A stretch of DNA of 64,000 nt from Ulota crispa (Eukaryota > Streptophyta > Bryopsida > Orthotrichales > Orthotrichaceae), in assembly GCA_963920765.1 (NCBI GenBank), contig OY987251.1, forward strand, positions 5,830,501 through 5,894,500, written 5' to 3'. Each line of letters begins with the position of its first letter. Within the stretch, counting starts at the first letter, position 1. Below are positions 1-63,725 of the stretch, one piece after another. The notes under the pieces are model-generated. The model had not been told where the DNA came from. It did not search any database and worked only from the letters and a program-made list of their open reading frames with translations. The translations under genes were made by a program, and so were the position numbers.

Positions 1-252
1 CCTTTAGGGGTTAAAATAAAAAATTTAAAGATTTTTTTTGGGCTGCCTGAACTACCCCTTCTCCTCTAGTTTTGATAAATTCTTGCATAACTTCTTTGTT
101 GAATGTCAAAATGAAGATTTTTTTGGGTGCCCACATAGATTTATGAATTCCCCACCTTCAATAAAAGTTTTAAAAAGTCACACAAAGTAGCTTATTCAAA
201 GGTACATCCAAAATTTCATTTGTCCCCCAAAGGGACAATGGTCCTTTAGGGG
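1..252. mobile_element. TTAA-flanked (piggyBac-like) MITE, partial, with a second end inserted
   Basis: The right terminus GTCCTTTAGGGG followed by TTAA (253-256) closes a copy of the 0.9-kb family, which matches 61260-61500 in reverse, including GACAAAGGG-like and GTGGGGAATT blocks. Positions 1-10 are another terminus, CCTTTAGGGG, also followed by TTAA (11-14), so a second element sits inside the first at the window edge. Confidence 0.75.
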
Positions 253-860
253 TTAAGTTATTGAGTATGGATGCTTCCACCTTAAAAATGGTTGACTTTG
301 AGCTTTTCATCTGTTTGAATGACACAACTTGTGCTCCAATGAAAGCCAATCCAAACTTTGCTATTGCCTCATGATTGCCTCATGTTCATTTGGCATATCA
401 TGCCTATTTATTGCACTTGCCACAATTTTTTTAAAGAGTTAATTAATAAATTTTATTCTTAACATACCTTGAGTAGAGAACAAACATTTAGAAGAAACTA
501 TAAAACAATGAAAAAACATACTTGCAATTTGCGAAATGCTTTTAGGCCAATTGCAGCTTTTAGGAGTCAACTAACAAAATTTCTCCTAACTCATTAAATG
601 ATTCCATATTCTTGAAGAAGACTCTATTGACCCCTTTTCTTTGAACAATGCCAAATTGCACTAAATATAGCACATTTTTTGGTGTAACCCACATTACCCA
701 AAATAATATTCTATGAAATATCTTAGCATTGCAACAAACGCATACAAAACTTACTCTATTAAAGCAAAGTTGATGAAGTGGTATTTTGAGTAAAACATTT
801 GTAATAAAATGCAAAAAATGTAATAAATAATATATAATGAAAAATTATGCTATTGGTTAA

Positions 861-1620
861 CCCCTAAAGGCCCAAGGAGCTCACTTTCGGCTTTATGAGA
901 ACTCGGGCAAGCTCTATTGATTTCATAATTTGAAAATTTTTCATGATTTTTTTAGGATGGATGCTACTCATCATAATCTACATTGGAAGCTTTATTTCAT
1001 GTCATTCCAATAAGTAATGCAAAAATTATAAGGTTTTTGAAAATTTCAATGTCAAATCGGGCAGCAAAAAATATATTCTTTTTTTTAAATTTTTTTATTA
1101 GAATTTTATAGATTGATACCTACTCAAAAAAATTGAACCATGCAATTCCAAACAATGAGGTAAGAATTACAAGGAGTTTTCTTTTGCGGGCAATGAAGGC
1201 AGGAAGAGGGTAGAAAAACATATGAAAGTATTTTTTACTCTCAATTTTGAAAATTTTCAAATGAAAATGAAAATTAAAGTTACTAATTGTCTGTTAGAGC
1301 ATTCTCACCATTGGGATTAACAATTTTCAAATTCTTCCAAAACTTATTAGCATATTAGTTATATCTTTCATTCATTAGTACCTTTCACTTTACAATTTTT
1401 GTAAAAATGAATCCAAAATCTTTTTTGGTTAATTTTTTATATGGCAACCCATTCTCCAACATATTGCCAAAATTGCACAAGAAATACAACATATGTGATT
1501 TTGTTTAAAAAATTTGAAAAACAAAACTTCACCTTCTAGAAGGATTACAAAAGTTTACATTTTGAAACTTAGGCACATTGATCTTGCAATTGGTGGGGAT
1601 GTTCATTTTAAAATTTTGGG
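861..1620. mobile_element. TTAA-flanked (piggyBac-like) MITE, right end lost
   Basis: It starts CCCCTAAAGGCCCAAGG directly after TTAA (857-860). The interior resembles the 0.9-kb elements (GAAGCTTT, ATTATAAGG and CACCATTGGGATT blocks in the same order), but I find no closing terminus, so the right limit is approximate. Confidence 0.6.
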
Positions 1621-2332
1621 ACAATGTACTTGTGCAAGTCAACCAAAGGATCCTATGGTTGGATTTGTCACAAAGTAAGTTTCAATCAAAATTTTGACCC
1701 TAGTTTGGGGACTAGTATATTGAAGCAGTTTTGGGCCTCTAAACATGAAAGAATTTTAGGAGGTAAAACAACCAAAAAGAAGTGCAATAATGCATACAAG
1801 TACTATATGCACTTTAAATGACAGAAAATAATTAAATTCACATGCATTAGCTGGTTAACAAACATGACAAGTATTTGCATACGTTAAGAATCCTTCTAGT
1901 TATCATTTAAATATTAAAATTAACAAGATGTTTCTTAAGATTGCACTGAATTTCATCCTTTGCACTTTAATCATATTTTCATTTTGGACTCCAAATAACT
2001 CTAGTGAAGCTACATCATACAAAAAATAATGGAGGTTGAAATATTGCATCATATTTACAATTTCTACCGATCTTTTTTTTATGATAACAATAATTCCAAC
2101 GACATTAATTTTGTTTCTTACAAACAAGATGAATCACTGTAGCCATGAAATTACATACTATTTTATTATTAGCTATCTTATTGGATTTGATTGAGTTTTC
2201 CAAACAAATGAATATTATAAATTGAGAGTGTGTTTTGTGGGACTCTTAGTGTATCCTGCTAATGCATATAACATTGATTTGCCAAAGTTACTCTATTTGT
2301 AAGACATTTGAATTAGGTGAGGGTGAATATCT

Positions 2333-6428: not shown

Positions 6429-6834
6429 GGGAATTGCTAAAGCCACACCCAAATTGCTAACGCAACACCCCTATAATCATGTAATTTGTAAATTTCATGC
6501 TCTTTTTTTAATTCAAATTGTCCATCATTCATTCTATCAAGGCATTACCACCTTCTTGAAAGAAAGAAAAACAAATATAATTTTTTGTTGAACTTTTATT
6601 TCACCATTGCTATTAATTTGATGTATTTTTATTTTAAATATTTAAAAAGTCCTATATTTTTTGTTTCAAATTCAAATACCTCCAATTTTTTTGAATATGG
6701 CACTAGAATTATAAAGGTGAAACAAATCCCTTGTCCCAAATTAAAAAAATCAACATTAAATTCTCATAGTTCATGCTCAAAACACACCTTGAGATGTGAC
6801 GTTAACAATTTTGGGTGTGACTTTAGCAATTTCC
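6429..6834. mobile_element. MITE with about 40-bp inverted termini
   Basis: GGGAATTGCTAAAGCCACAC left and GTGTGACTTTAGCAATTTCC right; the match continues inward to about 40 bp. Same family as 7571-7982. Confidence 0.78.
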
Positions 6835-6964
6835 TAAAAAAATTGCTATTAGATTTTTAAATTTATCTTGAGATCAAAATCAATTGCCACTCACAAAATC
6901 TTGGCTCATCGCTCATAGCTTACCAATTTACGCTCACAAGATAACGTCAGCCGTGAAAATAGCT

Positions 6965-7215
6965 GAGAAGTTTTCAACTTCGGCCCCCTCAAAGATGTTT
7001 GTGAAGTATACCAAGCCCCCTTGAAGGGCCCTGAACAATCCCAGCATGCAGCCCCCAATCAATGCACGCATTCCAGAATTTCCAGGGTTGCCTGACCTCC
7101 GCCAACTTCACGCACCAGATTCCAACTGCCAAACTGGATGACCGGCAGGGGCGGTCATATAGGCGGAGGCTGGCACGGACCTGGGGGCACTGACACCTAG
7201 AAATCAGAGTCAAGG
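6965..7215. other. Isolated G+C-rich island, identity unknown
   Basis: About 250 bp of clearly higher G+C than its AT-rich surroundings. The minus strand has a 74-codon open frame (6989-7213) with no family motif that I recognise. It could be an old gene fragment, an organelle-derived piece or a transposon remnant. Confidence 0.5.
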
Positions 7216-7982: not shown

Positions 7983-8088
7983 TATTTATACATGTTAAAA
8001 AGTCAACTTGCATCACTTGGTTGGCCAACACTTCTAACAAAGAAACATGCAAAATCCAATTTGGAAAGGAAAAATTGCATGCTTTTAA

Positions 8089-8329
8089 CCCCTGAGCACC
8101 CCATGACCTCAAAATGGGGAGCTCAGAAATGAAAAAATTCTAGTTTGACTTGCTTTAATCTTTCTATTAGTACGGTCAAACCATTTGTCCTTTTCCTTAT
8201 ACTTTGGAGCTTGTCTCACCTACCATTCAATACAGTTAGATTTTGTGGATCTTGTTTGTGATGACAATTTGGTTAGATTGAGTGTGAATGGGTCTAGATT
8301 TTGATGAATATGGGCTGAGAGCTGAGGGG
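8089..8329. mobile_element. TTAA-flanked MITE, 241 bp
   Basis: Left CCCCTGAGCACCCC after TTAA (8085-8088); right AGAGCTGAGGGG before TTAA (8330-8333). The TTAA on the right is also the left target copy of the next element. Confidence 0.65.
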
Positions 8330-8333
8330 TTAA

Positions 8334-8562
8334 CCCCTAAACATCTGAAAGTGTCTTTGTAATTGGTACAATACAAGGTATTCATCTTATATTTGGAATA
8401 GATCCACACCTTTCTTACATTTGATGAGATCAACAAAAAAGTTGAAATATAGATCAATGCGGCTTTGGTGAGGTATTTGAGATCCCAAACTAAAACTTTT
8501 TGTTGGTAGCAAATGCCAATTATACGGCAATGTACTTACTATCCCCGCAAGACATTTAGGGA
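8334..8562. mobile_element. TTAA-flanked MITE, 229 bp class
   Basis: CCCCTAAACATCTG on the left and AGACATTTAGGGA on the right, between TTAA at 8330-8333 and 8563-8566. The full interior matches 19600-19824 (inverted) and 55472-55832. Confidence 0.85.
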
Positions 8563-9432
8563 TTAACCCGCTATATTTTTTTGACTACATTTCACCAAAA
8601 ATACACTCAAAATGAGTTATTTTGTTAGCAAAGGCAAAAGAAATTAAAACTGAAATTTTGTTTTATTGTAGAATCTTGTAGTAGACTACTCCATCATGTT
8701 GTAGTAAAAGGTGAAAGATACCTACTGCACGGATTGTGAGTTAATAGGGTTTGAAGTGAGAAAGAACTTTTGGGGGGGAGGATATTCAAATTCTAGGTAT
8801 CTCTAATTTGGAGAGGCTTTTGCAATGATTAATTTCACTTTTTTGCTTGAAATTCTTTAGAATTGCCTTTGCAATAGCACTAGTCATATGTCTTTAAATT
8901 TTCATGACATTTTGAATTAGGAAATATATATTAATAAATTAGAAAACTGGCTTCAAGAAAATTCTTATGCAAAGATGTTTTTTCAACAATTTCTAGATTC
9001 TACATACATAATCTTCTCAAAATGTGAATGGTGGATTTTTAGATTTTAGCTAGTTTTAGAAGAAGGGAGAAAAAGAAAAGGAAATGGGCCAAAAATTGTG
9101 GTTTTCACAAGCTTGATCAACATAGGGCCAATTCCAACAAAGGTGAAGTAAAAGGCAATAAGCAAAAACTATTGCCTTCTTGGAATGAGGTTGGGTTAAG
9201 ATTTGGGAAGGAAATAGCTTTGCTCCTCAACCTTTGGGCAAGATCCTCAAAACTTTAGTTGCAATGTAAATAAATGTACCTCTCCTTGCCCTACAAGCAA
9301 GCAAAAATACATTTTCCTTCATATATATTTTTCTACAAATTGATAAGAGTTGAAAATTGTTGCATTGGAAAGCTACTCTTTGGCACACATCTTTTAAACT
9401 ATTTTTGAAAAAATAAAAAATAAAATAAAAAT

Positions 9433-9507: not shown

Positions 9508-9544
9508 GCCTGCCCAAAATTGCTATGTTGCCAAAAAATGTTGT

Positions 9545-9559
9545 TTGGTCCTTTAGGAG
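9545..9559. mobile_element. Orphan TTAA-type terminus
   Basis: TTGGTCCTTTAGGAG followed by TTAA (9560-9563) matches the right terminus of the 0.9-kb class, but no partner end is visible to the left, where an AT microsatellite intervenes. Confidence 0.45.
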
Positions 9560-10387
9560 TTAAAGTGCCAAAATACATATTTGTCACTTGTTTGCAACTG
9601 AGCAAATATTGATAGGAATTTTAGAAGGTATGGTGTGTTTCTTTGCAAATATAAGGCATGCAAAATGATACATAAAAAATTTGGTTCAAAAAATGGAGAG
9701 ATGCTTGTTTGTGAAAGTTGGTATGAGTAGAGTATTAGTGATTGATTTTGGGGTTGCTTATAAATGAAGCCCATCACACGATAAAAATAAGAATACGATT
9801 TGGAAAACATTGAGGATTTTAGCATAATGACACCTGTTCAATGACTTGGGTACCTTTGTGATGGTTTTCCATGTCTTCTTTCCTATTCATGCTCATATTT
9901 GAGGTGCCCATGTTTGAGCAGTGCAAAAAACGCCCATAATTAAATTACGTACTTTCAAGATAGGATTCTCATTAAAAAGCTACCAATACAATATTCACTA
10001 TTTCGGAAAATTTTGATTTCGGAACATTTGAATTTCACATCTTCATAAGATTATTTGTTTAATACTCTTCCAAGAGTATATAATCCAAAAGTCCCAAAAT
10101 TGATTTTTTTCGCAATTAACATATGTTGTGTTTCCCTTGTTTTGTAATTGGTTGGGAGGTCTTCTTCTCCAATGATTCCCTGTTTCTATATGTTGAAATC
10201 AATGAAAGGCTGGGATTCATTACAGTATAATTTGAGGTTATGGATTCCAAATTTGGACTCAAAATATCCAAAAGAAAGACAACACAAATTGAACTTTGGA
10301 TACAAAAATCTCCACTTGTGAAGACACCTCCAAGCCAAAGTTATGAAAATTGGTTCTGGTTCTCATTATCCACATAAAAAACATAGC

Positions 10388-17500: not shown

Positions 17501-20500
17501 GTAACAAGGTTTTTCTTACTAGAGAGGTGATCAAATTCTAAATAATTTATTGAGTACCTTCTAAATTTTCTCATTGTTTCTCTCATTTGCAATGAACATG
17601 GAATGTATTAGATGAAAAAATTAGGTTTTTTTTGTCCCATACAACTCGACTTTTATTTTTACTTCTTTCAATTTGTTTGCCATAAAAATTGTGCCATCGA
17701 ATATATTATGAGACTGATTGATTTGACCCTAGCCACTAACACACCCCTACACCTCTCCTTTCCCTCCCATGGAAAAAAAGTTGCACATTCTATACGCAAG
17801 ATTTCCTTTGACAAGTTTTGCAACTTTTCCCCTTCTTTATTCATAATATTTCTTTAGTTCTTTTTAAACTATGCTTTTTCTTAATTTCCTTTTTTGATAA
17901 TTTCTTGCTTTCTTTTTAATCTTTTATTTATTTTGGGTGTGTGCCAGAGATGAGGAAAATTTGTCCACCATGAAGACATCGTCTATCATTCCAGTGGATC
18001 TCAACGCATTCCTTCTTCAGGTACGTGAGCCACACCTTTGGATGGAGAACACCCCACAAAGGCCACCACTTAAGGTAGGCGCACCCATAAGCGTGGAAAT
18101 AAGGGTTTGGAGTAGGTAAAACAGTTGACTAATTTTAAAAAAATATTGGAAACCGAAAATATTGGCATTAATTTCAAGGTTCCAACTACAAGCATTTGTT
18201 CACGAAGATTTTTCAAAGTCCAAAATCACTGAAATTGTACGAACCATGTGTAAGAGATGCTAAAAACAAGGTTTGTTGGTTCTTAAATAGTGAGATGGGT
18301 ACTCAAAACCTCATGCTAGTCACCCACAACCATCACTTCATCACCCATAACCATCACTTAGTCACCCACAACCATTTGTTTTTTTATTGATTAGCCCTTG
18401 CCACTGTCAGGTGACGGCCATGGGGACATAGCGCTTATGGATGCTGCTACCTTACACACTTTTAGGTTGAGAATTCAGCTAAGATGAATACACCCAATGC
18501 TAACTCCTGCAATTAATGCCGTCACAAATGTATAGCGCAAAAACATCCAAAATTTGAAGTTTAGACTAGTCATAGATAGCTTATCATCTGTGACGTGTAG
18601 ATTTCAGATTTTAGATGTTTTTGTGCTGTATATGTGACGGCATTAGGTGCAGGTGTTGGCATTGGGTGTACTCACCTTAATATCAAAGCGCGCATTTTCC
18701 CATAATGCTTGCAAGCAAGCATAATGGCATTTGACAAAGTCTTTACTAATCTATATTACAAAGTGTGGGTTGTCCGTCACAAGTTCTATTAGAGAGAGGA
18801 AGAGAGGAAAAGCATCCAAAGGGAGGTGAAAGTCATTGAATCTTTTTTTAAAACATCTTTTATGAGTTTGAATTTCTATGTTACAAAGTATTGAGTTTCA
18901 AGTATTGGGTGTCAAGCATTGGGTGTTGTAAGGCACTCAAATTTTGAAATTTGAAGGTAAGGAGAGGAAGAATCAAAGAAAGAAAAAAATGTCATATTCG
19001 TTAATTTGGGTCAAAAGGGTCATTTTGGGACTTTTGAAAATTTGGGAAGATTGGGGTGATCACCCCAAAGCAAGCCCCTTTGGTACACTTGTCCTCACCT
19101 AAGATGAGAAATTTGTGAGGGAAAAAATCTTAGTGGCTCAGACTGAACTTGATACTTTTGAATCTGATTTGAGGTGACTATTTTGGATTGAGGTGGAGTA
19201 CATAATGGTACCTTTGTTTTTCCCAAATTAATGAAAATGACTTTTAAAGTGAAAAGTCAGCTAAAAAGTCCTAGGAAATTAAGAAAGACATGGCGCAAAG
19301 TGCATGCAAGGCACACTAGTGAATAACAAAATGATGAGCTTTGTCTTCTCCTTCAGATGGAGTGCGACATAGCCATGTTGGCAAAAGTTTTGAACGACGT
19401 GGTAGTGGCAAAGCACTTCACCAGAGCTGCTGATGCTCGCAGACGAGCCTTTGAGGCCATCCTCTGGAATGAACTCATGGGCCAGTGGCTGGACTACTGG
19501 CTTCCCTTACAAAAGCCCGCCCACATGCGAAAGGTACTAACCCCCTCTCTCTCACACTCTTCATATGAATGTTAAGTCCATCTTTTGTTGTTGTTTTTTA
19601 CAAGTAAACGTCCCATGGAGATAGTAGATACGATGTTGTGTATTTGGCATTTGTTACCAACAAGAAGTTTTAATTTGGGATTTCAAATAGCTCACTAGAG
19701 TTGCATTAATCTATATTTCAACTTTGTTGATTTCAAATGTAGTAAGAATGTGAATCCATTCCCAATACAAGAATAATATCTTTTATTGTCATGGTTGCAA
19801 AGGATGCGTTTAGACATTTAAGGGTTAAGACAGAAACATGTCATTTTTTTAGAATTATATGTCATAGTCCTTTGTGAATATTGGAAGTTTTGTACATCCA
19901 TGGGTTGAGGATGAAGTTGGGATGGAACTAATTATGTCTCAATACTTGCCTTGCTACTTTGCAACATGACCTACTTGTAGATCAACCATAAGATACAAGT
20001 TTGGGCATTTGCTAAGGACAGGGTGGTTCACACAATGTCCCACATCCCAAGTCCCACTGAGATTTGAGAATTTGAGTTGAAATGTTGGACTTAGTGCTTC
20101 ACACTATGTCCTAGGTCCCATGTCTTGATTTAGTTGTCTTTTACTTACATGGCAGCACGCTTTGAAAGTTTTGGCACTAGAGAAAGTGGGACTTCCACTT
20201 GAGGTTTTGGGTTGATTTGTTTTGCTAGACCTAGTTTGTAGCCAAAGTCTCACCAATATTTGTTTGCATAAAATATTTGTAACTTTGTTTTAGTACTCAT
20301 TTTTACCCTTAAGGTAGCAGCATCCATAAGCGTTGCGTTCCCATGCTTGTTACCTGATAGTGACAGGGCTAATCAATAAAAAAACAAATGGTTGTGGGTG
20401 ATGGTTATGGGTGATGAAGTGATGGTTGTGGGTGACTAGCATGAGGTTTTGAGTACCCATCTCACTATTTAAGAACCAACAAGCCTTGTGTTTAGCATCT

Positions 20501-23500
20501 CTTACACATGGTTCTTACAATTTCAGTGATTTTGGACTTTGAAAAATCTTCGTGAACAAATACTTGCACTTGGAACCTTGAAAATGATGCCAATATTTTT
20601 GGTTTCCATTTCCTAACTTACAATATTTTTTTCAAAGTTAGTCAACTGTTTTACCTACTCCAAAACCTTTATTTCCATGCTAATGGGTGCACCTACCTTA
20701 TAACCCAACAAAGCTTCAATCTCACATTGAACTTGTAATCAAAAATGGGACGTGGGATGTAGTGTGAACAACCCCTAAGTTGCACACAATTATTTATGTC
20801 CAATAATCTAACTTGCCACTATGTAGCACAAACTGGTTACCTAGTACACAAACCATTTTACTTAATGTGAACCAATGTTGAGGAAGAGTTTGGAACTTCC
20901 TTGGTAAAAGAAACTACATTTCTCATTTTAGATTGGGTGTTTTTAGCGCATGCACTTCGCTATTGCCTATAGTACTTACAGTACTTCTACTATAGTAAAA
21001 ACCGGCTAGATTTTTGGGAAACTTTTTAATCTTCTTGATTCAAGTTTCAACTGGTTTTTTGACATTTCATTTGGTTGCCTTCTTCTTATTTTTTAAAATT
21101 CAAATCTCCCCGCTCAGTGATATGAATGCATACACCAACCAAAAAGTACAAAGTTGGACGTTGCAAATCCACAAACTTTTATAGAAACTTTATACTTTAA
21201 AGTGAACCCATTACCCGTATATGGAATAATGACTTTTCCTCGTGTTGCAGAGCATGTACGTGTGGGACAGCAGCAGGTTGAATCAAAACGTATATGCCTC
21301 AAACTTCGTGCCTTTATGGTGCAATATATTCTCTCCAGGTCATTGAACTTTTTCATTTAAAGTTTTACTCCTTTTTCCTCCACTTTGATCACTTTTTTAG
21401 TTTATTACTTTTTGATGCCTTCTGTCCCACATGTTTTTTTAGGTCATGATTTTTTCTTTATTTTCATCCTGGTATTAGATTTTTAACGTGTTTTCATTTT
21501 TTCGTTTTTTGTTTTTTAATGTTTTACAGGAGATTCAAAAATTGATAAAGTAGTGGAGGCGCTCTCCACCTCGGGCCTAGTGCAGCCTGCAGGAATCGCC
21601 ACCTCGTTAATGGAGACGGGGCAGCAGTGGTTTGTACCAAACTTAAGCTCTACTTTGTTGTTAATGCAAAAGCTTTTTCACACCCTTAAATCCATAAAAG
21701 AGACAAAAAGTGGGTTGCTTTTTTAGCAGTTTATATATTTCAAGGAGAGTAACAAAAAATGGATTTAGATGAAGAATTAAAACCCACATTTTTCAGTACC
21801 AAAAGTAACATGGCTTCAGTGTGATTTGTACCATATTCATAGTACTTTGTTTTTTTTGTTGATACAAAGTTTCACTCCTTTTGTGTACATATAGTACAAA
21901 CAGTGATCGCTTTCATAATTGAGAAAGCTTCAAGGAAAATAACAAAATGTACCGAAGAAACCCACATTTTCAAACTATGTCTTGAAACTGTAGGATAAGT
22001 GCCTCATGCAAGAGGATTCTCACTTTTAAGCCATTGGGAACAAGGGTAGAGGTCAAGTAACCAGTGGTGCAAATGTGAGATTGCTTGTACGTGAAACCCT
22101 TAACTTGTGTAAATATTGTTTGAAGAAAATACCAATAATTGTATTTTTGCTAACAAGAGTGAGGTGAGGTTATGCAAAGTGACACCACTTTGTAATTTTG
22201 TTATCATGTTCACAAGTATAAGGACAACTAAAAATGCAATTTTTTTTGATCAAGCGCTTGTTTACGCTGCTATAATTGATATGGTGTTAGTTTTTTGTTT
22301 TTTGAATTAGAGTCATGCTCAACATAACATTCAATAGCACTTAACAAGCCTGCCCTCCCTCCAACTGAAGAATGTGGAATATTCCACACCCATTAGTAGC
22401 TAAGAGGACACTTGGTTGAATTTGTCAAAGAGTTTATGAAAGAGAGACTCAGTTTAGTGCACATATGTCAATGTGGGAACCAGGCATGTCAAAAAAAAAA
22501 ATTTGTTATGATGAAGTTCGTGAATAATACCTGAAAAGAGGGAAAGGCAGCCTCTCTTCAGGCTCCTGAATGTTATGGAAAGGGTCATTCTAAGCGTTTG
22601 AAGTTGTGATTTTTTTTTCTAGGGACTTTCCAAATGCCTGGGCTCCGCTCCAGCACATGATCATTGAGAGCCTCATGATGTCAGGATGTAAGAAAGCAAG
22701 AGCCATGGCCATGGCCATCATGTGCTCCTGGTTGCAATCAAACTACGCGGCATTCCTAAGCAGTGGCCACATGCTTGAAAAATATGACGCGCGGTATTGC
22801 GGAGAAGTTGGTGGGGGTGGAGAGTATACAACCCAAGTAAGTTCTCCAATTAATAAATAAAATTGCTCATATTCAACTTTACAGTTTATTTTACTTCTTT
22901 GTCCTTTGCAACTTGTTTCTTATTTTTATTTTTTGTCTATGGGTTCATAAAATTTTACACTAAATGGTGCAATTAGGTTACCTTAAAAATTAGGTTGCCT
23001 TACCTCTAGAAAGTTCTCTTATGACTTCTTGCTTGGTCACTTGAAGACCATTGCAACTCTCTTGATACTAGGATTTCACATGGTTAACAACTTGACGTTG
23101 CTAGTTTGTTTTGTTTTTCTGCAGCTTTGTTGTTGTTGTCAAACTTTTAAAAAATAATTATTACAATGATTATCAATGAACATAATTGTATTATCAATTA
23201 GTATTTATATAGTGTAAAATGACAAGAAATTAGTATGGGGCAGCCTAAGTGCACTATTTAGTGTGGTCTTTTCTCCAACCACTTTTCTTTTGTGTCATGG
23301 TGATTGGTCAATTGGACCCAATCATGGACACAACTCCACATCATTCTCTCAAGTGAGCAAAGTTGCCGGTTTACACGCAAGTTCTGTAATCGGTTCCTAT
23401 ATATTTCCCTAAATTATTTAATTTAATTTTTTTTTAAAAGAGACTTTGTATGACTCAATACAAGGTTTTGAATTGTATAATTTCTTACAATTCTTTTGTT

Positions 23501-25507: not shown

Positions 25508-25635
25508 GTTGCCTGATGAATTCAAAGGGATTGAGGTAACGGGCCCGGAAAAGAGCCCGCAATGCAGTAACAAGTCGCAACTGCATTACCGTGGACCGAG
25601 CAATCCTCTCCACTTGATGTACAAAGAAGGATTAA

Positions 25636-25994
25636 CCCTTAAAGGATTGACGGGTGACCGTGCCTGAATCAAGGCGCAGCCCATGAAGAATTCACTATTC
25701 AATCCCTCTATAGCAGTGTGACATGTGCCCATAAAGGCCAATATTCTTCCCAAAAGTGCAAAAGTCAATAATGCCCTCACGAAAATTGTAGGAAGGGCAG
25801 CAAAAGGGTAGCACAAGACATTTACATCTCTTCACAAATTGAAGTTTAAACAAATATGGAGGCATGCGATTTCTGACATTCAGAGATTGAGCACATCACC
25901 CTGACCACTTTCAGAAGAAAAAAAATTGAAAAAAACATGATTTTGCTTCGTAAGCACTGAAAGGACGATTTTCGACCTCATGGACGTTTAGGGG
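25636..25994. mobile_element. TTAA-flanked MITE, 359 bp class
   Basis: CCCTTAAAGGATTG on the left, GGACGTTTAGGGG on the right, between TTAA at 25632-25635 and 25995-25998. It shares its interior with 62598-62959 (GTCAATA-TGCCCTCA-AATTGTA-GAAGG). Confidence 0.82.
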
Positions 25995-26045
25995 TTAACG
26001 GTGACATTCAAAAGCGCGCGCAGCTGCTACAGCGACAACTCCGAT

Positions 26046-26970
26046 AATCATCTCCATAGATATTTTTGCGACTCCAAGAAATTGTACGTCGACACAGATT
26101 TAGGCAGATTTAGGCCTTTTGCATGATTTGCATGCTCACTTGCTGTGCAAGTCGCCATTACGCCGTGTGAATTGGCCATTACGCCGTATGAATTGGATCA
26201 GAATTAGTTGGTAGCAATGCAAGAGTATCTGTCGTTGAGCACAGCGATGGTTGCATACACGGGAAGCCAACAAGCGCGATGAGTACAGCTTTTTTTTTAA
26301 TTTAGAAACTGGCTGAAAAGCGGTGGTAAGGATATGCCGGAAGAATTATTTGAATGATGCGAAACGTAAGGTTCCTTTGGCATGAGCTTGAGTTACCCGA
26401 TCTCAATGCTGCGAGTGGTAGCGGTAGTCTAAGAAACACGACAGTTAGTGCGGTATCGTTGTGATGAAACGAGTGATGGTTGTGCACGGTGGCACAATCC
26501 TCGGGTTGAATCATCTCCACAGATATTTTGCGACTCTAAGAAAATGTAAGTTGACACAGATTTAGGCAGATTTAGGCCTTTTGCATGATTCAGTGCATGC
26601 TCACTTGCTGTGCACGTCGCCATTACGCCGTGTGAATTGGCCATTACGCCGTATGAATTGGATCAGAATTAGTTGGTAGCAATGCAAGAGTATCTGTCGT
26701 TGAGCACAGCGATGGTTGCATACACGGGAAGCCAACAAGCGCGATGAGTACAGCTTTTTCTTTAATTTAGAAACTGGCTGAAAAGCGGTGGTAAGGATAT
26801 GCCGGAAGAATTATTTGAATGATGCGAAACGTAAGGTTCCTTTGGCACGAGCTTGAGTTATCCGATCTCAATGCTGCGAGTGGTAGCGGTAGTCTAAGAA
26901 ACACGACAGTTAGTACGGTGTCGTTGTGATGAAGCGAGTGATGGTTGGCACAATCCTCGGGAAATTGGCG
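26046..26970. repeat. 463-bp direct tandem duplication upstream of PAP
   Basis: Two adjacent copies (26046-26508 and 26509-about 26970), both opening AATCATCTCCA, are nearly identical, with scattered substitutions and small indels. Each contains an internal short repeat, GAATTGGCCATTACGCCGT-like, present twice. The divergence is low, so the duplication looks young. Confidence 0.9.
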
Positions 26971-38296: not shown

Positions 38297-38560
38297 TTAT
38301 ATCGCAATATTCATTAAAAAGGGAAAAGGCTTACAAAGTGGGACTTTTGCAGGATTAGGGTGGTCACCCTAATTCAAGCTCTAGCATTTTTTTTGGGTAC
38401 ACATGGCCTCACCTGAGAGGAGGAATTTGTGAGGGAAAAAATCTTAGAGGCTTAGACTGAATCTAATACCTTCAAATTTAGTTTAAGGTGGCGATTTGGG
38501 ATTAAGGTGAAATACGAAATGGTGCACATGTTTTCCCCCTTTTAATGAATATCACGTTTT
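38297..38560. mobile_element. GTTAATTTGGG-family MITE, type A, intergenic
   Basis: Weak ends (ATCGCAATATTCATTAA and TTAATGAATATCACGTTT) but a clear type A interior (CCTCACCTGAGAGGAGGAAT, GAGGGAAAAAATCTTAGAGG). Confidence 0.7.
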
Positions 38561-39171
38561 ATTATTATTACTTCAAATTGATGACCCCTCTTCCAATTCC
38601 ATGACCACAATTTTGCAAATGAGCATGCAATGCACTACCACTTCTTGATATGCAACATACATACTTGTCGATTAGCTCCCACCAAAAATTAAAAAAATTG
38701 ATCACGGAAAATTGGTGCTTCAAACATTTAGGGGTCGATATGGTAAATTTGCCTTTGTCTTTGTAGAAACTTTTTTTTTCCTTCAAAGTGATTTGCTGAC
38801 AACTAAAGATGGTATTGGTTTTGTAGTTATGTAATTATTGCACCAACTGTCATAAATTTATTGAATACTAATATCATGTCCTTTCAAGTTTAAGACAATC
38901 ATAAAAGTGAAAAATATCTCATTATTATAAATTTTTGCCGATAATATCCATGAATGTAAGTGGGCTAAGTGTAACTTGTTTTAATTGTATCGTTAACTAT
39001 TAAAGATGGTGGTTCATTTACTTCAAGGTATTGGCCCTTTAGTAGTGAAGTTTTCAACATAGCTCTTACTCATTTTTCACAAATTTCACTATTTATTTCT
39101 TAACTTTTTGTAAGCATTTGATTTTGACATTAGTTGATTACTAAAAAAACAAAAGCCATGTCACATTGCAG

Positions 39172-40637: not shown

Positions 40638-41838
40638 ATATTGACAAGATCTTGGTTGTTCAATTGGAAGTTCTACTAAATGTTTTGGATTTGGATTCTA
40701 AGCTTGACATTTGGAGGCTTCACACTATGGCTATTCAAGTCAAGCGGCCATGGAAGTTCATTGTTAGGAGTTTGGATTTTAAATCTGGCCTTTATAGGCT
40801 TTTTACTAAAATGGGCTTAACCCTTAAAAGACCAAACCCCCTTTTTAGAAACATAGTGATTTTGGGCAGGTACATGTGATTGGAGCTTTTCATATTTCAA
40901 ACTAAAATTTTAACAAAATGTGGGGACAAGGTTATTCTTTCATATGCACTAAATTTCATAACATTTGGAATTATGAGTAAAAAGTTATGGCCTAATATGT
41001 TGTTTTTTACGTTTGTTGGGCAGCTTGGGCAGATTTCTAAAAATCACTTTTTTCAAAAACAAAATTTTTAAATTGGTTTAGGGGATTTATGTGAATGTAG
41101 GAAGCTTTGAATCATTCCGCTTTGATCAACAAGATGAAAATTATGAGGATTATTTGTTTGCAGGCAGTTATGGGCTCTCTACTCCAAAATAAACTTTGAA
41201 GTTCTTTATTTTACTCAATTTTCAACATTTTGGAAAAAAAACAAAACCAAAGGATGAATATTGTTTATGACAACACTATGACCATTGGGATTGGCATTTT
41301 TCATTTCCATAATTAAATTCTTAATAATTTAGTGTTTTAAATCATTCTTTACTTCTTTTTACTTACTAACTTTTTTCCATATGTTATACAACTCCAAATG
41401 ATTTGAAACTTTTTTGACGTGTACTTTACTCAAGTGAAATAAGGAATTTACAGAAGCACCACCCACATGGCCTTTTTTCCTTAGGAATTTCACCTTCTAA
41501 AGGGTAGCTGCCCGGTTTTTTGTAAGACATTTTTGAATATTCAAACCATTCTAACTTCCAATCCATGTGGTGGAAAAATCTGAATTTTTTTCCACATCTT
41601 CTAAAACCATTCTTTTACAAGATCCTATGGTCACATAAGCATAAAAATGTTTTTGTTTTCAAATTTGGTTGATGCTCTAAAAATGGCAATTTTTGAAGAG
41701 TTTTTGTTGAAAACTTTGCTTGGTCCTTTAGGGGTTAAGGCTTCAAAAACAACATGTCATTGTCTATTTTTAGATCATCTTCTTGACCACTCAATCCCAT
41801 GGCCTCTTGACTTGGTTAGCCATAATTTGAAGTGGTCC
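40638..41838. mobile_element. PIF/Harbinger-like MITE (left end unresolved) with a nested TTAA element
   Basis: The right end (ATAATTTGAAGTGGTCC followed by TAA) and the stretch around 40638-40800 match the inverted sequence of the 32652-33203 element, including GACAAGATCTTGG and GGAGGCTTCACACTATGG. Continuity is broken by a TTAA-type element at 40821-41734. I could not find a clean left terminus. Confidence 0.7.
40821..41734. mobile_element. TTAA-flanked (piggyBac-like) MITE, 914 bp
   Basis: Termini CCCTTAAAAGACCAA and TTGGTCCTTTAGGGG are inverted and enclosed by TTAA at 40817-40820 and 41735-41738. The interior aligns end to end with 61260-62189. No open frame above about 65 codons. Confidence 0.85.
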
Positions 41839-51206: not shown

Positions 51207-51500
51207 ATTTAGGTTGCGTTAACAATTAGGTTTCCTTACCCTGGAAAGTTACCTCATGACTCATCACTTGCCACTTGGAGGTGCATGCAGCTCTATATGA
51301 ACTTGGATATGAACTTGGATGTCACATGAGTTACAGTTTAGACGCCGCTAGTTTGTTTTTCCGCTATCTTGTTGTTGTAAGACTCTTTAAATGTTGTTTA
51401 TTGCAGTAATTGTTGATGAAATCACTGTAGCAGTAGTAAATATTTATGTACTGCAGAATGTCGAGAAATTAGTGTGGGCAACCTCGATGCAATATTTTGT
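51207..51500. repeat. Dispersed repeat, copy 2
   Basis: Counterpart of 22970-23270, with a short internal doubling of TATGAACTTGGA. It runs up to the TTAA-type element at 51512. Confidence 0.65.
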
Positions 51501-51511
51501 GTAGGGGTTAA

Positions 51512-51769
51512 CCATTGAAGGGCCCTTGGGCTTTGGAGCTACGGTACCAAATACGGTCGCAACCAATATTCAGAAGTTTGAATCAGTTGGAAATTAAGTA
51601 TTATAACCATACAAGGGTTATATGATGGTGGGTGCATAAAAAAAATTGGAATAATTTTTTTTGAAAAGTCTTCAGAGCAGCTCAAATATGTCTGTACATA
51701 TGGCAGCAAAGGGTTTTCGTGACGTTCAGGGTACATATGGCAGCAAAGGGTTTTCGTGACGTTCAGGGG
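51512..51769. mobile_element. TTAA-flanked MITE, 258 bp
   Basis: TTAA at 51508-51511 and 51770-51773. The right end ACGTTCAGGGG matches the family; the left end CCATTGAAGGGCCC is diverged. A 37-bp block is tandemly doubled at the right end (51694-51730, 51731-51767). Confidence 0.65.
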
Positions 51770-52051
51770 TTAAGGCACGCTTTTCAATACACTCCTGCTT
51801 TTTTGAGTTCATTCTAGGATACTTTGGATACTGGGCTCCTACGTAGTTTTTCAAAGCATGGAGTGACCATGCTTCTGACACGTGTGCATGAGGAAACACT
51901 ATAATGGGGCCACACGGTCTACATGTGGATTGGTAATAGATTGCAATGTTTGTTCATTACCTGCATAGGCTGCCCATGCTTTCCTCCATGCCAGGAAATA
52001 ATGACCTGTACCCAGTCGGTGATGTGACTTCGATTTTTTGGTGGTACTCAC

Positions 52052-52365
52052 TAAGGTTGGAGCACCCATAAACGTCAAACTAAGGGTTTTGAACATGATG
52101 ACTATTAATAAACAACTAGCAAATTATAGGATTCTATTAGGAACAGAAAAAAATGAGTTTGTATTTTCAAATATATTATTTGGATATTGTGAAAATAAGT
52201 TATGAATTTTTAAAGAATAAATTGCCATTGCACCCATAACCACTTATAAGAATTCATGTTCATACATACATTTTTGTCATTACATCTATTCATTTTCATA
52301 GATTTTTCAAGATTTCAGAAGTGACGGTTATGGAAACACTGACGCTTATGGGTGCTCCTACCTTA
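52052..52365. mobile_element. TAAGGTAG-family MITE, 314 bp
   Basis: TAAGGTTGGAGCACCCATAA and TTATGGGTGCTCCTACCTTA are inverted termini. The copy is intact and serves as the empty-site reference for 4823-5440. Confidence 0.82.
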
Positions 52366-54914: not shown

Positions 54915-57900
54915 CTAAACAGCGTACACTCTTATGACCTGCTCAATTGCAGCCCGGCAAACAGGACAACCCCAACCCTTGGCCTTGATCATTCCCAAGC
55001 AGTCTATGCAACCTGCCAAATGACCACACGGAATACACACACCTTGCGCCGCGGCATTCCAGCAAACAACACACTGGTTTTCCTTCTCCGCTTCCGTGGA
55101 TGCCGTTCCTTCTGGCGATGGAAGGGGCGGAGCAGACGGGAGAGACGTCAGTAGTGCAGGGGCTTCTCTTACAACGTCAGGAACTGATGTGCGAACTGGC
55201 AACACTGATGATGAGATCTGGCTTGGCCCAGCGTCATTGACACGAGAGGACTTCAGACGTTCCTTACGGTGCCTGGGCTTCTCAGAGCTTACTGGAGGAC
55301 CCAGTGTGTCTTCACCAACCCTGTGGGTGTGAAGCTGAGCTGCAGCTTGTGAAACCTTTGAGTCTTGTGAAACAGCTCTCTGAATCGGAGGAACTTTACC
55401 TCCGCTAGGAGCAGTCTATAAGCAATAAAAACAATGACTGAGCTCGTAGCAACAACAGATTGAAGACTTAACCCCTAAACGTCTAAGCGTGCCGCTGCGA
55501 CCAGTAGAATACGAGGAGTTTTTCTTCTATTTAGAATAGATTCACACCTTTACTACATTTGAGATCAACAAAGAAGTTGGAGAATAGATCAACGCGGTTC
55601 TAGTGAGCTACTTGAGATCCCAAATTAAAACTTCTTATTGGTAGAAAATGTCAATTATACGGCAGCGTATACTACAAGGAAACCATGGTCGAATCTACAA
55701 AAAGTTGACAAAGATTGTGACCTAATCTACAGCATACTGTAGATTAGGTCACAATCTTTGTCAACTTTTTGTAGATTCGACCATGGTTTCCTTGTAGTGC
55801 GGTATATACTAAGCCCTATGGTCATTTAAGGGTTAAAACAAGAACAAGAAGTAGAGGCTAACCGCAAGTGCCTCTACCTCAAACAGAAAAATGTACTTTC
55901 CATGAGTCTTTTCTTATATTTCTCAGTACAGTGCTTGGAGTACGATTCTCAATATAACTTCGGCTGAATGAAGATTTGAAATACAGTACTGTGTTCAACT
56001 ATATTAGAATGACACTAATTCTATAACATGTTGCGATTATACTAGACATGACAAAGTCTTTTCTTTGAAATGAGAGGATTCTACATGCTACTAAATGCTT
56101 TAAACAAGTACTCAATTTTTAATAGGCAATATAAGTTTCCGTTGCTTAGTTCCTCCTCCCTCAGAGTCGAGACAAGGAATATATCAACAAGGCAAGATGG
56201 ATGTTGTTTCACATTTTACACATATGGCGTCTTACTGAAATTCTTACCTGAGAGATGCCCTTGCAAGACTTATAAAACTTTTCCAGTTGCGCCTTGTCAC
56301 CTTCCGACTCTGCCAAAAATTTGTACTTCGATTCTGTTGCAATGCAGAGTGTCAATTGCCAAAGATTAATCGAGAAACCTAACTATGTGACTCGTGGCTA
56401 GTGCGAAAGGAAAGCTTACTTGTATTTCTATCCAGAATGATTACAACTGGGTCTGATAAGCTTAGTTTAGGTTCTTCCACTTCAGCCTTTGATAGGGAAA
56501 TCACAGTGCGTGGTAACGGAACCTGCACAAAGAAAGATCAAATAAACCTTTGTTAGATCAAGAACGGAGACACAAGAATTTGTAACTAATCAGTGACAGA
56601 TTAGTTAGAATTGCTAATACCCGATGAATGACAGTAATAGCATTTCAATGGATCCCCCCAATTAGATCCCAAACTGAATTTCAAAAGCAAGATGATCCAC
56701 CATATTCGTTTATTCAGGTTCACCAAGACCACATGCTTTATCAAAATTCACACGTTATTTTCAAAGAAGAGCTGTAACCCCTCTTAACCCACCTTTGGTG
56801 CTTGGTATATAGCAAGTTCAAATTTTGGAACTCGCCTGGGATTGGTCTCGGTTGGTAAAATTACAGCCCAACTATCAATCCCACAAAGCTTATGTCAGTC
56901 TCACTTGCACACATCAACCTGCAGCCAATAAAAAAAGTGTCCATATACAAGAAACTGTACACTCGGAAATGCAATAAAGAAATTAGATGCATATCGTAGA
57001 TTTTGAATCTAGACCATGCTTACATTTTCTTAGTCATCCACTGAGGCGCAATAGCTTCCAAAAACCCAGGTCCAGACAACTCTCTCAATACTCCGCCGAA
57101 TATACAAATGCGATCCTGTCACTCACCCCACTGTGTGTCAAATTCGAGATTGTACACATTCTCAGAAGCTCCACCGCAGCTTGCAAATGCCACAGCTGAA
57201 GAGGGGCACATACTACCGTTGGTGTTTGTGGAGTTCTTCCCTGCAGCAAAATCCGTTACACTAAATACACCACACACAATGGACCACAGTAACCCCTAAG
57301 AGGCCACGAATTTCCAAATTAAGTGCAGCACTTCGGACAACCTCGAAAGTTGCGAAGTAGCGGTCAACCTCCAAAAGCTGTGGATCTTATTACATTTTGC
57401 CCAATACAATTGCACACTCATACTAGACTATATGGTGTATTTAGTGTATTAACCGTTATACATAAAAAGCTCATAATTTAGCAAGAGAATTCATGAGAGG
57501 TTACCTCAATCATGCGGATCACAGCCACATGACCTCGATTGCGAGCCATGTGTAACGGAGTAAGAGAGTCATCGTTAACAGCCAACGGATCAGCTGCATC
57601 CCATAACAGCACCATTGATGAGAGTGACGTAACGTAACATTTGCAAGAGACTCATATAGGAAGTTCTCTAGCAACTGACTAGTTGCAGGGATCTGGCAAA
57701 CGTACCACCACGGGATAAAAGGAGCAGTGCTGTCTTATCAAGACCACGCTTTGCTGCATGGTGAAGAGGATAGCCTCCATAACTCCCTGTATTACGGTCA
57801 TCGTCAATCATGGTTGCAACTTCAGCAGAAGTGAGTTGCAATCATAACGTTTCCTTGGTCAAAGAAAGTCAAGGTGATTGAGAAATCCTTTCAAGTTCAT

Positions 57901-59418: not shown

Positions 59419-60366
59419 GTTCAGCCCGAACCCTAACTCTATATACAGAGCGTCGTCACATCCAGCATCCACCAGAACCTAAAATCCAAGAAAAATAACA
59501 AACCTGATGGCGCTGTATTTACTGTTCAAGACTTCCACAAAAGCAGCAACTCCGAAAGAAAAGCCTCCGCTCTCCTGCCATAGCCTGTGCTGTCGCCTCC
59601 ACTCTAGCTCGGCAATAATTCTTCCAAATCGTTCAACCCAAACCCTAACTTTACAGAGCGTTGTCACATCCAACATCCACCAGAACCTAAAATCCAAGAA
59701 AGACAACAAACCTAATGGCAATTAAAATCCAAGAAAGACAAAGAACCTAATGGCAATATTTCTGTAGTTACTGCTCAAGACTTCCGCAAATGCAGCAATT
59801 CCGAAAGACAAGCCGCTCTCCTGCCATAGCCTGTGCTGCCACCTCCACTCTGGCTCCGCAATAACTCTCCCAAATCTCTACATACAGAGCGTCGCCACAT
59901 CCAGCATCCTCCAGAACCTAAAATCCAAGAAAAATAATAAACCTGATGGCAATACTTCTGTAGTTACTGCTCAAGACTTCCGCAAATGCAGAAACTCCGA
60001 AAGAAAAGCTTCTGTCCTGCCATAGCCCGTGCTGTCGCCTCCACTCTGACTCGGCAATAATACATCCATTAGGACGTCATCGGCAATAAGAGCAAGCGAG
60101 GAAACATCGTCACATCCAACATCCACCACAACCTAAAATCCAAGAAAAACAACAAACCTGATGGTAATATTTCTAAAATCCAAGAAAAACAACAAACCTG
60201 ATGGCAATATTTCTGAAATCCAAGAAAAGCAACTAACCTGATCGTAATTTTTCTGTAGTCACTGTTCAAGCCTTCCGCAAATGCAGAAACTCCGAAAGAA
60301 AAGCCTCCGCTCTCCTGCCATAGCCTGTGCTGTCGCCTCCACTCTGACTCCTCAATAATTCTTCCA
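59419..60366. repeat. Fourfold tandem repeat upstream of the XBAT-like gene
   Basis: Four imperfect units of about 210-250 bp start near 59455, 59663, 59894 and 60107. Each begins with a TCACATCCARCATCC-type block, followed by AACCTAAAATCCAAGAAA, then CTGATGGCAAT, TTCCGCAAATGCAG, and ends with CTCCTGCCATAGCC and TCGCCTCCACTCT. In unit 4 the AAATCCAAGAAA part is repeated three times. The array lies 0.45-1.4 kb upstream of the ATG, in the promoter or a far 5' UTR. The first two units are preceded by a CCCTAAC telo-box-like motif. Confidence 0.85.
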
Positions 60367-61203: not shown

Positions 61204-61259
61204 ATTGGCAATATTGCCCACAAGCATGTGCATCTGTTGCATTGAGGCATATATGTTAA

Positions 61260-62189
61260 CCCCTAAAGGACCGTTGTCCCTTCGAGGGACAAGTTGGACT
61301 TTGGGCATGTACCTATGGCTAAACTACTTTGTGTGATTTTCTGAAACTTCTATTGAAGGTGGGGAATTGAAAGATCTACTTGGGCATCTAATTTCTTCTT
61401 CATTCCGGCATTTGACAAAGAAGTTATGCATGGATTTCAAAAAATTTGGGGAGGATTGCCCGTCCGGGCAGCCCAAAAACTTCTTCAAAAATTACTTTTT
61501 TAAAAAACTCAAATTTGAAATTGGTTCTTTAGATTTTTTTATTCATGAGAAGCTTTGAATCATTCAATCCCAATCAATGACATGAAAGTTATGAGGGGTT
61601 TTTGTTTGCAAGCAATTATGGATTCTCTACTCTAAAATAAACTTTGAAGTCCTTTATTTTACTCAATTTTCATTATTTTGGAAAAAAATTAAACAAAAGG
61701 TAGTAGATTGTTTATCACAACATTTTGACCATTAGGATTTGCAATTTTCATTTTAATAATTAAATTCTTAACAATTTAGTGATTTGACTCATTCTCTACT
61801 TCTTTTTACTTACTGATTTTTCCTATGTATTGTATAGTTCCAATTGATTTGAAAATTCTCCCACACATGCCTAACTTGATCTCCTACATGGAAAAAATAA
61901 AACACAACTTTGGGTAGAGTAATTTTTTTGTTATAAGAGTGGTCAAAGGCTTCTAAAATTTTTGGGCAACATGGAAAAAAAAAATCTTTTTCACTTTAGA
62001 TGTAAATATCTCACTCCTCTCCATTTGGAATGAGCTGATTTTTTTCCCACAAGTACCTCTTCTAGTATGGGGCAAGATCCTATAGTTGGATTTCCCAAAA
62101 ACAAAACATAAATTCCATTTTTTCTAAACCTCCTAGAAGTGGTAGTTTTTAGTGATTTTGGCAGAAAAAAGGGCTTGGTCCTTTAGGGG
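61260..62189. mobile_element. TTAA-flanked (piggyBac-like) MITE, 930 bp
   Basis: Termini CCCCTAAAGGACC and GGTCCTTTAGGGG are perfect 13-bp inverted repeats between TTAA tetranucleotides (61256-61259, 62190-62193). Best-preserved copy of the 0.9-kb class; it has no transposase frame. Confidence 0.9.
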
Positions 62190-62597
62190 TTAAGCTTGTG
62201 GTTCAAACAAACTCTCAATTATTGATGGCCTTAATCCTGAACCCTTGAACGTTGAGAAGGACAAAAAACATCCTCTAGCTTTGAAAAAACATTCTGCGTG
62301 ACAAGAAAAAGCCATTTTTTGTTTGATATATTTTCAGAAGTGAGCATAAACACATGGTCCATCATGGAAGGCAAAAATTTATCTCAGTAGATGCACCCAT
62401 ACTTTTAGATATCTAAGATTGTGAAAAAAATCAAAGTCTCAATGTTAGGTCCCAAGTTGCCCTTGTTGCATTTTCATGGGGTCGGCAAGCATTGTTGACT
62501 TTTGCAACCTTTAGAAACAATACCATTGGTGCCCACCTTTGAAAACATTGTAGAAGCTACAATGTGGGCAGGCTGCGCTCACTCGCCTGACGCTTAA

Positions 62598-62959
62598 GGC
62601 TTAGACACCGGGTTGGTCACCTTGACTAGCCCGGCTTACACTATTCATCTAAACATTGCCAATGCCCAACAATTATAACATTATTTCCTACAGTCACAAG
62701 AGTCAATAGTGCACGGTGCCCTCATGAATATTGTAAGAAGGACAACTTGAAACCTAACACCGTATATCTAGATCTTATCACAATTTGGATTACCTAAAAA
62801 TATGAATGTAGTAAATGAGATAGTTTTTTGCCTTCCATGATGACCTATGTGTTCATGATCACTTTTGAAAAAAAATCAGATGAAAAATAAGTTTTTTTTG
62901 TAACACAAATTTTTTTTCAAAACCAAAGGGCATTTTCTGTCCTCCGCAACGTTGAGGGG
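62598..62959. mobile_element. TTAA-flanked MITE, 362 bp class
   Basis: Its left part (after TTAA 62594-62597) aligns with 25636 onward; the right end AACGTTGAGGGG is followed by TTAA 62960-62963, which also begins the next element. The left terminus has diverged (GGCTTAGACACC). Confidence 0.72.
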
Positions 62960-62963
62960 TTAA

Positions 62964-63608
62964 CCCCTAAATGCCCAAGGCACCCAATTTGGGTGTTTGC
63001 AAAACTTTGAAGAGTAATGAAACCTTATCAAATCACTATTTTTGGTACTCTCTTTTGAATGCCAATTTGTTTTGAAGTCTATTTTCAACATCAAAAATCT
63101 GATTTGAAAAATGAATATTGATGATTTTTCTACTCAAGATTTTGTACAAGGGTGTCCACTGCAAACTTGAGTTTTTTAGTGTTGGAAGATCTTGAAAATG
63201 AGCCTCAAATACACTAGAGCTTGGAGAAAAATCCGCATTAGCAATCCATTAATAAAAAATACATGAGTAGATTTTGGAAGCTATAAATTGACTAAAGTTA
63301 AACATGTAATGACCTTAAACCTCATATTTTTTTAATGACCAACTTTTTAGATTTGACATGTGAAATGAGGATTAGAAAACTTCAAGTCACTTTTGCAATT
63401 TTAACACCCTCATATTCAAATGTTATAATCTTTCAAACTACAAGTGATTTTGTTATGTTTTCTTTTTCCATGTAATCTTTAACATGTCAAGTTTAAATTT
63501 GTACGGTTACATTTTAAAAAAACTTGATGAGATTTATGAAAAAATTAGTTGACTATCCACTTTCCTAAAAATGCCAAAAAGTTCAAAAAGGCCTTGAGCA
63601 TTTAGGGG
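62964..63608. mobile_element. TTAA-flanked MITE, 645 bp
   Basis: CCCCTAAATGCCCAAGGC and GCCTTGAGCATTTAGGGG are inverted repeats with one mismatch, between TTAA at 62960-62963 and 63609-63612. The interior is unlike the other classes that I can compare here. Confidence 0.9.
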
Positions 63609-63725
63609 TTAACTCATGGTGTAAAGGACCCTTATGCAATGTTTGGGGAGATTTCTATCTTCACTCACTCATGCTCAATATTTTCCATTTTCATCCGATC
63701 TCTCTCACAAGCCTCTACCACTTAT

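What the first reader, a model, noticed from the sequence alone, without database searches (positions are those of the whole stretch)
61256..62193. A TTAA-flanked, CCCCTAAA-ended MITE group in a plant: candidate piggyBac-type elements
At least twelve full or partial copies in the window end in CCCCTAAA-like inverted termini placed exactly between TTAA tetranucleotides (for example 61260-62189, 62964-63608, 40821-41734, 25636-25994, 8334-8562, 55472-55832). A fixed TTAA target duplication next to C-rich termini is the signature of the piggyBac superfamily (Kolobok also uses TTAA). To my knowledge piggyBac elements are rarely reported from land plants, so an abundant plant family would be notable.
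Basis: partly seen in the sequence, partly recalled or inferred. Interest (0 to 1): 0.75.

Follow-up and report, generated by a model that had tools for sequence, protein, structure and literature searches.

The report
Moss genome full of piggyBac transposons
The repeats are short, non-coding relatives of piggyBac jumping genes, a kind best known from animals, in a moss genome that carries tens of thousands of their ends and about a hundred mostly broken piggyBac transposase genes.

Summary
All six listed elements lie exactly between TTAA sites. The window has 11 exact TTAACCCCTAAA ends against 0.04 expected; the 274.8-Mb genome has 30,972 against 77 for the reversed pattern.

The piggyBac reading also holds. 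A 95-bp gap-free paralogue (83%) of the given element's insertion site has a single TTAA where the 938-bp element sits. The piggyBac transposase family PF13843 gives 120 matches in the genome, best E 1.3e-73, and the aspartate triad aligns with solved piggyBat and piggyBac transposases. Five transposase loci (four of them chosen because they resembled the element) end in the same CCCCTAAA terminus, with 500-600 terminal bases homologous to the element's right half. One 5.03-kb transposase element occurs twice at 90.5% identity, homology ending at TTAA sites.

The host is a moss by its LEAFY gene (species unknown). Of 120 transposase matches, 110 contain stops, and no intact autonomous partner with both matching ends was found. 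Ten searches of an open-access library found no described plant piggyBac family with its transposase. Verdict: new member of a known superfamily, in an unexpected host and number.

The parts
61256..62193 (+). A1, the given element, 938 bp with both TTAA sites; termini CCCCTAAAGGACC
   Evidence: Ends and flanks; empty-site paralogue C3:17211422-17211516; right half homologous to the 3' ends of five transposase elements; full-length copies at 87% and 88%
40817..41738 (+). A2, same family, 922 bp
   Evidence: 79.9% to A1 over 373 bp, 64.9% over 951 positions; sits in a repeat whose paralogues run on without it
857..1766 (+). A3, diverged family A copy, right site decayed to GTAA
   Evidence: 57.7% to A1 over 886 positions, E 1.3e-36; ends
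35..256 (-). A-type terminus and adjoining arm (partial copy)
   Evidence: 77.7% to A1 1-224
9509..9563 (-). A-type terminus (partial copy)
   Evidence: 80% over 55 bp to the left end of A2
55468..55836 (+). B1, 369-bp element; right end CCCTTAAATGACC
8330..8566 (+). B2, 237-bp element, shares its left TTAA with E1
   Evidence: 78.8% to B1 over 212 bp
19624..19828 (-). B-type end (partial copy)
   Evidence: 76.6% to B1 1-208
25632..25998 (+). B3, 367-bp element, grouped by termini and size only; no sequence match to the others
   Evidence: Ends; no other window match
62960..63612 (+). C, 653-bp element with 21 of 22 matching terminal bases; shares its left TTAA with D
62238..62963 (+). D, 726-bp foldback element, left site decayed to TGAA
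   Evidence: Arms 62280-62427 and 62775-62922, 74% complementary; 67.9% to its own reverse over 741 positions
8085..8333 (+). E1, 249-bp element ending CCCCTGAG / CCCCTCAG, shares its right TTAA with B2
51762..51773 (-). isolated terminus (TTAACCCCTGAA read on the - strand)
51500..51511 (-). isolated terminus-like site (TTAACCCCTACA read on the - strand), uncertain

Best explanation
The element at 61256-62193 and its relatives are non-autonomous piggyBac-superfamily transposons in a moss nuclear genome. A piggyBac transposase (DDD catalytic core) made by larger TTAA-bounded elements elsewhere in the genome recognises the CCC(C/T)T-type termini, cuts the element out and inserts it at a TTAA, which ends up on both sides. 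Shown here: one TTAA at the empty site of this very element, homology of its right half (to the last base before the flank) with elements that carry piggyBac transposases, and the identity of those transposases. Inferred: movement in trans, origin of family A by internal deletion of a longer element, seamless excision.
For: Empty site with single TTAA, 95 bp, no gap, 83%. A second element (232 bp, L006:3841-4072) in a repeat with seven uninterrupted paralogues, TTAA in five and TTGA in two. A D copy inside a B copy at B's TTAA, sites now TTAA and TTCA. PF13843: 120 matches, best E 1.3e-73; six of six translated frames pass the family cut-off; P0004 against piggyBat E 2.6e-24 and piggyBac E 7.6e-20 with the three aspartates aligned. 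Elements with transposase between TTAA-CCC termini: L042 and L045, two copies of 5.03 kb at 90.5% with homology ending at the sites, L044, L049. Right ends of five transposase loci match A1 to its last base, E 2.9e-26 to 5.1e-66. 4,746 of 5,668 A-type termini follow exact TTAA.
Against: No element with A-type ends on both sides of a transposase was found: left ends are missing in L028, L041 (about 4.5 kb upstream examined), L037, L029 (1.5 kb) and L043. Four of the five linked loci were chosen because they matched A1; L015, related by DNA but not so chosen, has no such end within about 2 kb, and neither L015 nor L025 matches A1 or the ends of L041 and L043. L046 and L047 showed no convincing termini. 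110 of 120 transposase matches contain stops and 10 of 30 aligned domains lack at least one of the three aspartates. The paralogues of the A2 site carry CAAA or other words, none TTAA (0 of 14). 922 of 5,668 A-type termini lack exact TTAA; decay is assumed, not tested.
Confidence: 0.93

Rival explanations
1. The repeats belong to another superfamily that uses TTAA (Kolobok or Sola3; their target site is recalled) and only lie near piggyBac remnants.
For: Same target site; no Kolobok or Sola transposase was searched for; complete A-type autonomous element not found.
Against: The right half of A1 is homologous to the 3' end of five piggyBac transposase loci up to the TTAA, and independent piggyBac elements L042/L045, L044 and L049 have the same kind of CCC termini at TTAA.
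Confidence: 0.04
2. They are Stowaway-like (Tc1/mariner, TA target) or Tourist-like (PIF/Harbinger, TAA/TTA target) MITEs whose termini happen to extend the site to TTAA. Target sites recalled.
For: These are the usual TA-rich-target MITEs of plants.
Against: With a TA target the outer T and A would be free, but 4,746 of 5,668 termini have all of TTAA; read as TAA or TTA the two flanks are not direct repeats; the empty site has TTAA once.
Confidence: 0.01
3. The transposases are contamination (for instance animal or oomycete) and not part of the moss genome.
For: PiggyBac is known mainly outside land plants (recalled).
Against: The matches lie on contigs C1 to C11, ten of them 15.8 to 41.4 Mb; C10 also bears plant genes and C4 the LEAFY gene.
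Confidence: 0.01

Closest known systems
piggyBac superfamily (solved: piggyBac 6x67/6x68, piggyBat 9c0f)
   Same: TTAA target kept once at the empty site, termini beginning CCC (that of the original piggyBac recalled), PF13843 transposase with three aspartates, cysteine-rich C-terminal motif in a few copies
   Different: Moss host; several families of short foldback and deletion-type elements in very large number; transposase copies mostly broken
piggyBac-type MITEs of other organisms (recalled for animals; Blepharisma MITE paper PMC9942856 seen in a search listing only)
   Same: Short elements without genes that share ends with a transposase element
   Different: Land plant; families not compared by sequence
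Stowaway and Tourist MITEs of plants (recalled)
   Same: Short, abundant, inverted termini, AT-rich targets
   Different: TA or TAA/TTA duplications, not TTAA
'PiggyBac' entries of plant repeat tallies (PMC6890710, one passage: 1,230 fragments in Ceratopteris; PMC10004981, passage: PiggyBac listed among angiosperm MITE superfamilies)
   Same: The label
   Different: The passages seen give no transposase, termini or empty sites

Membership tests
piggyBac superfamily | TTAA target, one copy before insertion and one on each side after | tested here: met
   A1 empty site; L006 element, five of seven paralogues TTAA; D in B. A2: site contiguous but not TTAA in 14 of 14 paralogues
piggyBac superfamily | DDE_Tnp_1_7 (PF13843) transposase in related elements | tested here: met
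   inside complete elements L042, L045, L044, L049
piggyBac superfamily | DDD catalytic triad | tested here: met
   Aligned with 9c0f and 6x67; all three D in 20 of 30 domains (my count)
piggyBac superfamily | C-terminal cysteine-rich domain | tested here: inconclusive
   Motif in 3 of 30 loci, 2 with all cysteines, one of these with an in-frame stop; control strand 0 of 30
piggyBac superfamily | Termini beginning CCC next to TTAA (recalled) | tested here: met
piggyBac superfamily | Same termini on both sides of a transposase, for the A family | tested here: inconclusive
   Right ends in five loci; no left end found
piggyBac superfamily | Seamless excision | not testable with these tools
   Needs an excision assay or population data
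Kolobok / Sola3 | Their own transposase linked to these termini | not tested
   No such family was searched
Tc1/mariner (Stowaway) | TA target, outer bases free | tested here: not met
   4,746 of 5,668 termini follow full TTAA
PIF/Harbinger (Tourist) | 3-bp TAA or TTA direct duplication | tested here: not met
   Flanks are not 3-bp direct repeats in the frame of the termini; empty site has TTAA once. Its transposase was not searched

The most novel reading that the evidence does not exclude
piggyBac has been a dominant and long-lived DNA transposon in mosses: several transposase lineages, kept by descent or acquired repeatedly, have filled this genome with more than ten thousand TTAA-targeted elements, a load of this superfamily not described from a land plant.
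Probability: 0.55. Interest if true: 0.75.

Novelty: new member of a known kind. Interest (0 to 1): 0.62.

Why it matters
PiggyBac is a standard gene-delivery transposon known chiefly from animals. A moss genome with about 31,000 exact piggyBac-type ends makes it possible to ask how the superfamily reached or persisted in land plants, how mosses silence it, and whether plant MITE annotation, tuned to TA and TAA duplications, has missed it elsewhere.

Tried and rejected
Left end of the A-type autonomous element: the TTAACCCCTAAA at L043:417 looked like it, but 417-1342 aligns from end to end with another MITE (71.5% over 973 positions), so it was dropped. A search for a left terminus with up to 4 mismatches found none in L028, L041, L037 or L029 with their added flanks. 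The end first taken for L049 (7215) belongs to a MITE at 6247-7215; the transposase element there more likely ends at 6250. My note (L043 left arm = MITE left arm) was thereby overturned.

Empty sites that did not decide: of 66 candidate junctions in 269,043 bases, overlapping and spurious pairs included, 2 had spanning paralogues. L044: 22 of 38 non-self matches run at least 10 bases, at most 26, across the junction; weak support. L045: all matches other than its own flanks stop within a few bases of the TTAA; no information. A2: 32 of 40 non-self matches span by at least 20 bases each side, but 0 of the 14 aligned have TTAA.

Preference for landing on other elements' ends: GGGGTTAACCCCTAAA 1,189 among 30,972 (3.8%), while 29 of 387 window TTAA are such ends (7.5%), so no preference is needed.

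Not searched: Kolobok, Sola, Harbinger transposases. The 14 control genomes are not named in the output and gave no LEAFY match either, so they say little about plants. Structure prediction was not used.

Literature: ten searches, the whole cap. Seen: PMC10004981, PMC6890710 and PMC10619864 as passages (in the last 'piggyback' is not a transposon), all others as listings only. Repbase and most subscription journals are not held, so an earlier report may exist.

Full report
OBSERVATION. In 64 kb there are 11 exact TTAACCCCTAAA on both strands against 0.04 expected, 9 against 0.58 with one mismatch, and 12 against 7.46 with two. Without asking for TTAA the window has 15 CCCCTAAA, 11 of them preceded by TTAA. 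The elements form several families: A (61256-62193, 40817-41738, 857-1766 and partial ends), B (55468-55836, 8330-8566, partial 19624-19828; 25632-25998 by termini and size only), C (62960-63612), the foldback element D (62238-62963) and E1 (8085-8333). E1 and B2, and D and C, abut and share one TTAA.

GENOME. The window is C10:5830501-5894500 of an assembly of 274.8 Mb in 157 contigs. TTAACCCCTAAA occurs 30,972 times, the reversed control 77 times. CCCCTAAAGGNCCAAG occurs 5,668 times and, with TTAA in front, 4,746 times; controls 0. Thus 83.7% of these termini follow exact TTAA although it was not asked for. The first 105 bp of A1 gave 2,480 candidates, of which the 40 scored have 94-100% identity, A1 itself included. 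Two of these copies, read further, match A1 from base 1 to 938 at 87% and 88%.

HOST. The window has a malectin-like receptor kinase frame and purple acid phosphatase exons. A LEAFY gene lies on C4. An exon of it is 104 of 106 identical (counted on the printed alignment) to PDB 4bhk, E 9e-73, against 2.6e-49 for the entry named PROTEIN LEAFY, 2vy1. That 4bhk is the Physcomitrium patens protein is recalled. The host is therefore taken to be a moss; the species is unknown.

TARGET SITE. The joined flanks of A1 match C3:17211422-17211516 over 95 bp without a gap, 83%, with a single TTAA where A1 lies. A 232-bp element in L006 (ends TTAACCCCTAAACGACC and TTAACCCCGGAAGGGCC) lies in a repeat with seven uninterrupted paralogues, four in the window, with TTAA in five and TTGA in two. 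In L045 a D copy interrupts a B copy at B's TTAA; the sites read TTAA and TTCA. For A2, 32 of 40 non-self matches run across the junction, but in the 14 aligned the tetranucleotide is CAAA in 10 and another word, never TTAA, in 4; the TTAA must have arisen in that copy before insertion, or the match is only to a diverged relative.

TRANSPOSASE. PF13843 gives 120 matches (116 of 528 first candidates scored, so a lower bound), the best E 1.3e-73 over positions 2-349 of 349; 110 of the 120 rows have stops inside. Six of six translated frames pass the family cut-off. P0004 (389 aa, L046) matches solved piggyBat (E 2.6e-24) and piggyBac (E 7.6e-20) with its three aspartates aligned. Over the 30 best loci D stands at the three positions in 27, 22 and 26, and all three together in 20; 29 of these 30 contain a stop. 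A cysteine-rich motif was seen downstream in 3 of 30, control strand 0 of 30.

LINK. Eight transposase loci were read at 8 kb. L042 and L045 hold the same 5.03-kb element at 90.5%; homology stops at the TTAA sites, one of which has decayed to TTCA in L045. L044 and, after correction, L049 also have two CCC-type termini, L043 and L048 one, L046 and L047 none convincing. In L041, L028, L037 and L029 sequence downstream of the transposase matched A1, so I read beyond it. In these four and in L043 the match runs to a TTAACCCCTAAA end 1.6-1.9 kb past the catalytic domain: A1 from 363-443 to 938 at 69-72% in the four (E 2.0e-55 to 5.1e-66), A1 339-938 at 59% in L043 (E 2.9e-26). Aligned with A2 too, these ends agree closely over the last 17 bases and diverge outside the TTAA. 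The four were selected by their match; L015, related but not so selected, had no such end in about 2 kb, and L025 no match in the 1.5 kb held. Left termini were not found, so the complete autonomous partner of family A is missing.

MECHANISM. The economical reading is that short deletion derivatives and foldback elements were moved in trans by piggyBac transposases, landing at TTAA. Shown: single TTAA at empty sites, terminal homology, transposase identity. Inferred: movement in trans, internal deletion, seamless excision. Abutting elements that share one TTAA (1,189 of 30,972 exact ends) need no special preference, since 29 of 387 TTAA in the window are element ends.

NOVELTY. In kind these are piggyBac elements; the host and the number are the news. 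Ten searches of an open-access library listed no paper on a plant piggyBac family with its transposase. Passages seen: a review naming PiggyBac among angiosperm MITE superfamilies (PMC10004981) and a fern genome table with 1,230 PiggyBac fragments (PMC6890710). Repbase and subscription journals were not available, so priority is open.

Noticed in passing
window 55671-55798: Inside element B1 lies a near-perfect palindrome: 128 bp match their own reverse complement at 98%.
   Followed up: no
window 5517-5615 and 52267-52365; L045 left flank: A repeat whose copies end in CCTTA(A): 43 matches include many that stop at the TTAA next to the L045 element. It may be another TTAA-bounded family without CCC ends; the link between the window repeat and the L045 flank rests on similar end letters only.
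   Followed up: no
G000:C1:1180709-1181995 and C8:19570986-19572215: PF13843 matches in two pieces without stops inside (open frames 563 and 472 aa): possibly intron-bearing, younger or domesticated copies. The C8 frame was translated, the C1 one not read.
   Followed up: partly
window 26129-26428 and 26594-26893: A 300-bp direct repeat, 99% identical, 465 bp apart: a recent local duplication.
   Followed up: no
window 18147-18357 and 20398-20608: 211-bp inverted repeat, 96% complementary, 2,040 bp between the arms.
   Followed up: no
window 59437-60366: Array of 75- to 142-bp degenerate direct repeats.
   Followed up: no
window 13510-13663, 15566-15717, 19079-19235, 38383-38562: A repeat of about 160 bp or more, 65-80% alike, four copies in the window and others in fetched loci; it supplied empty sites.
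   Followed up: partly
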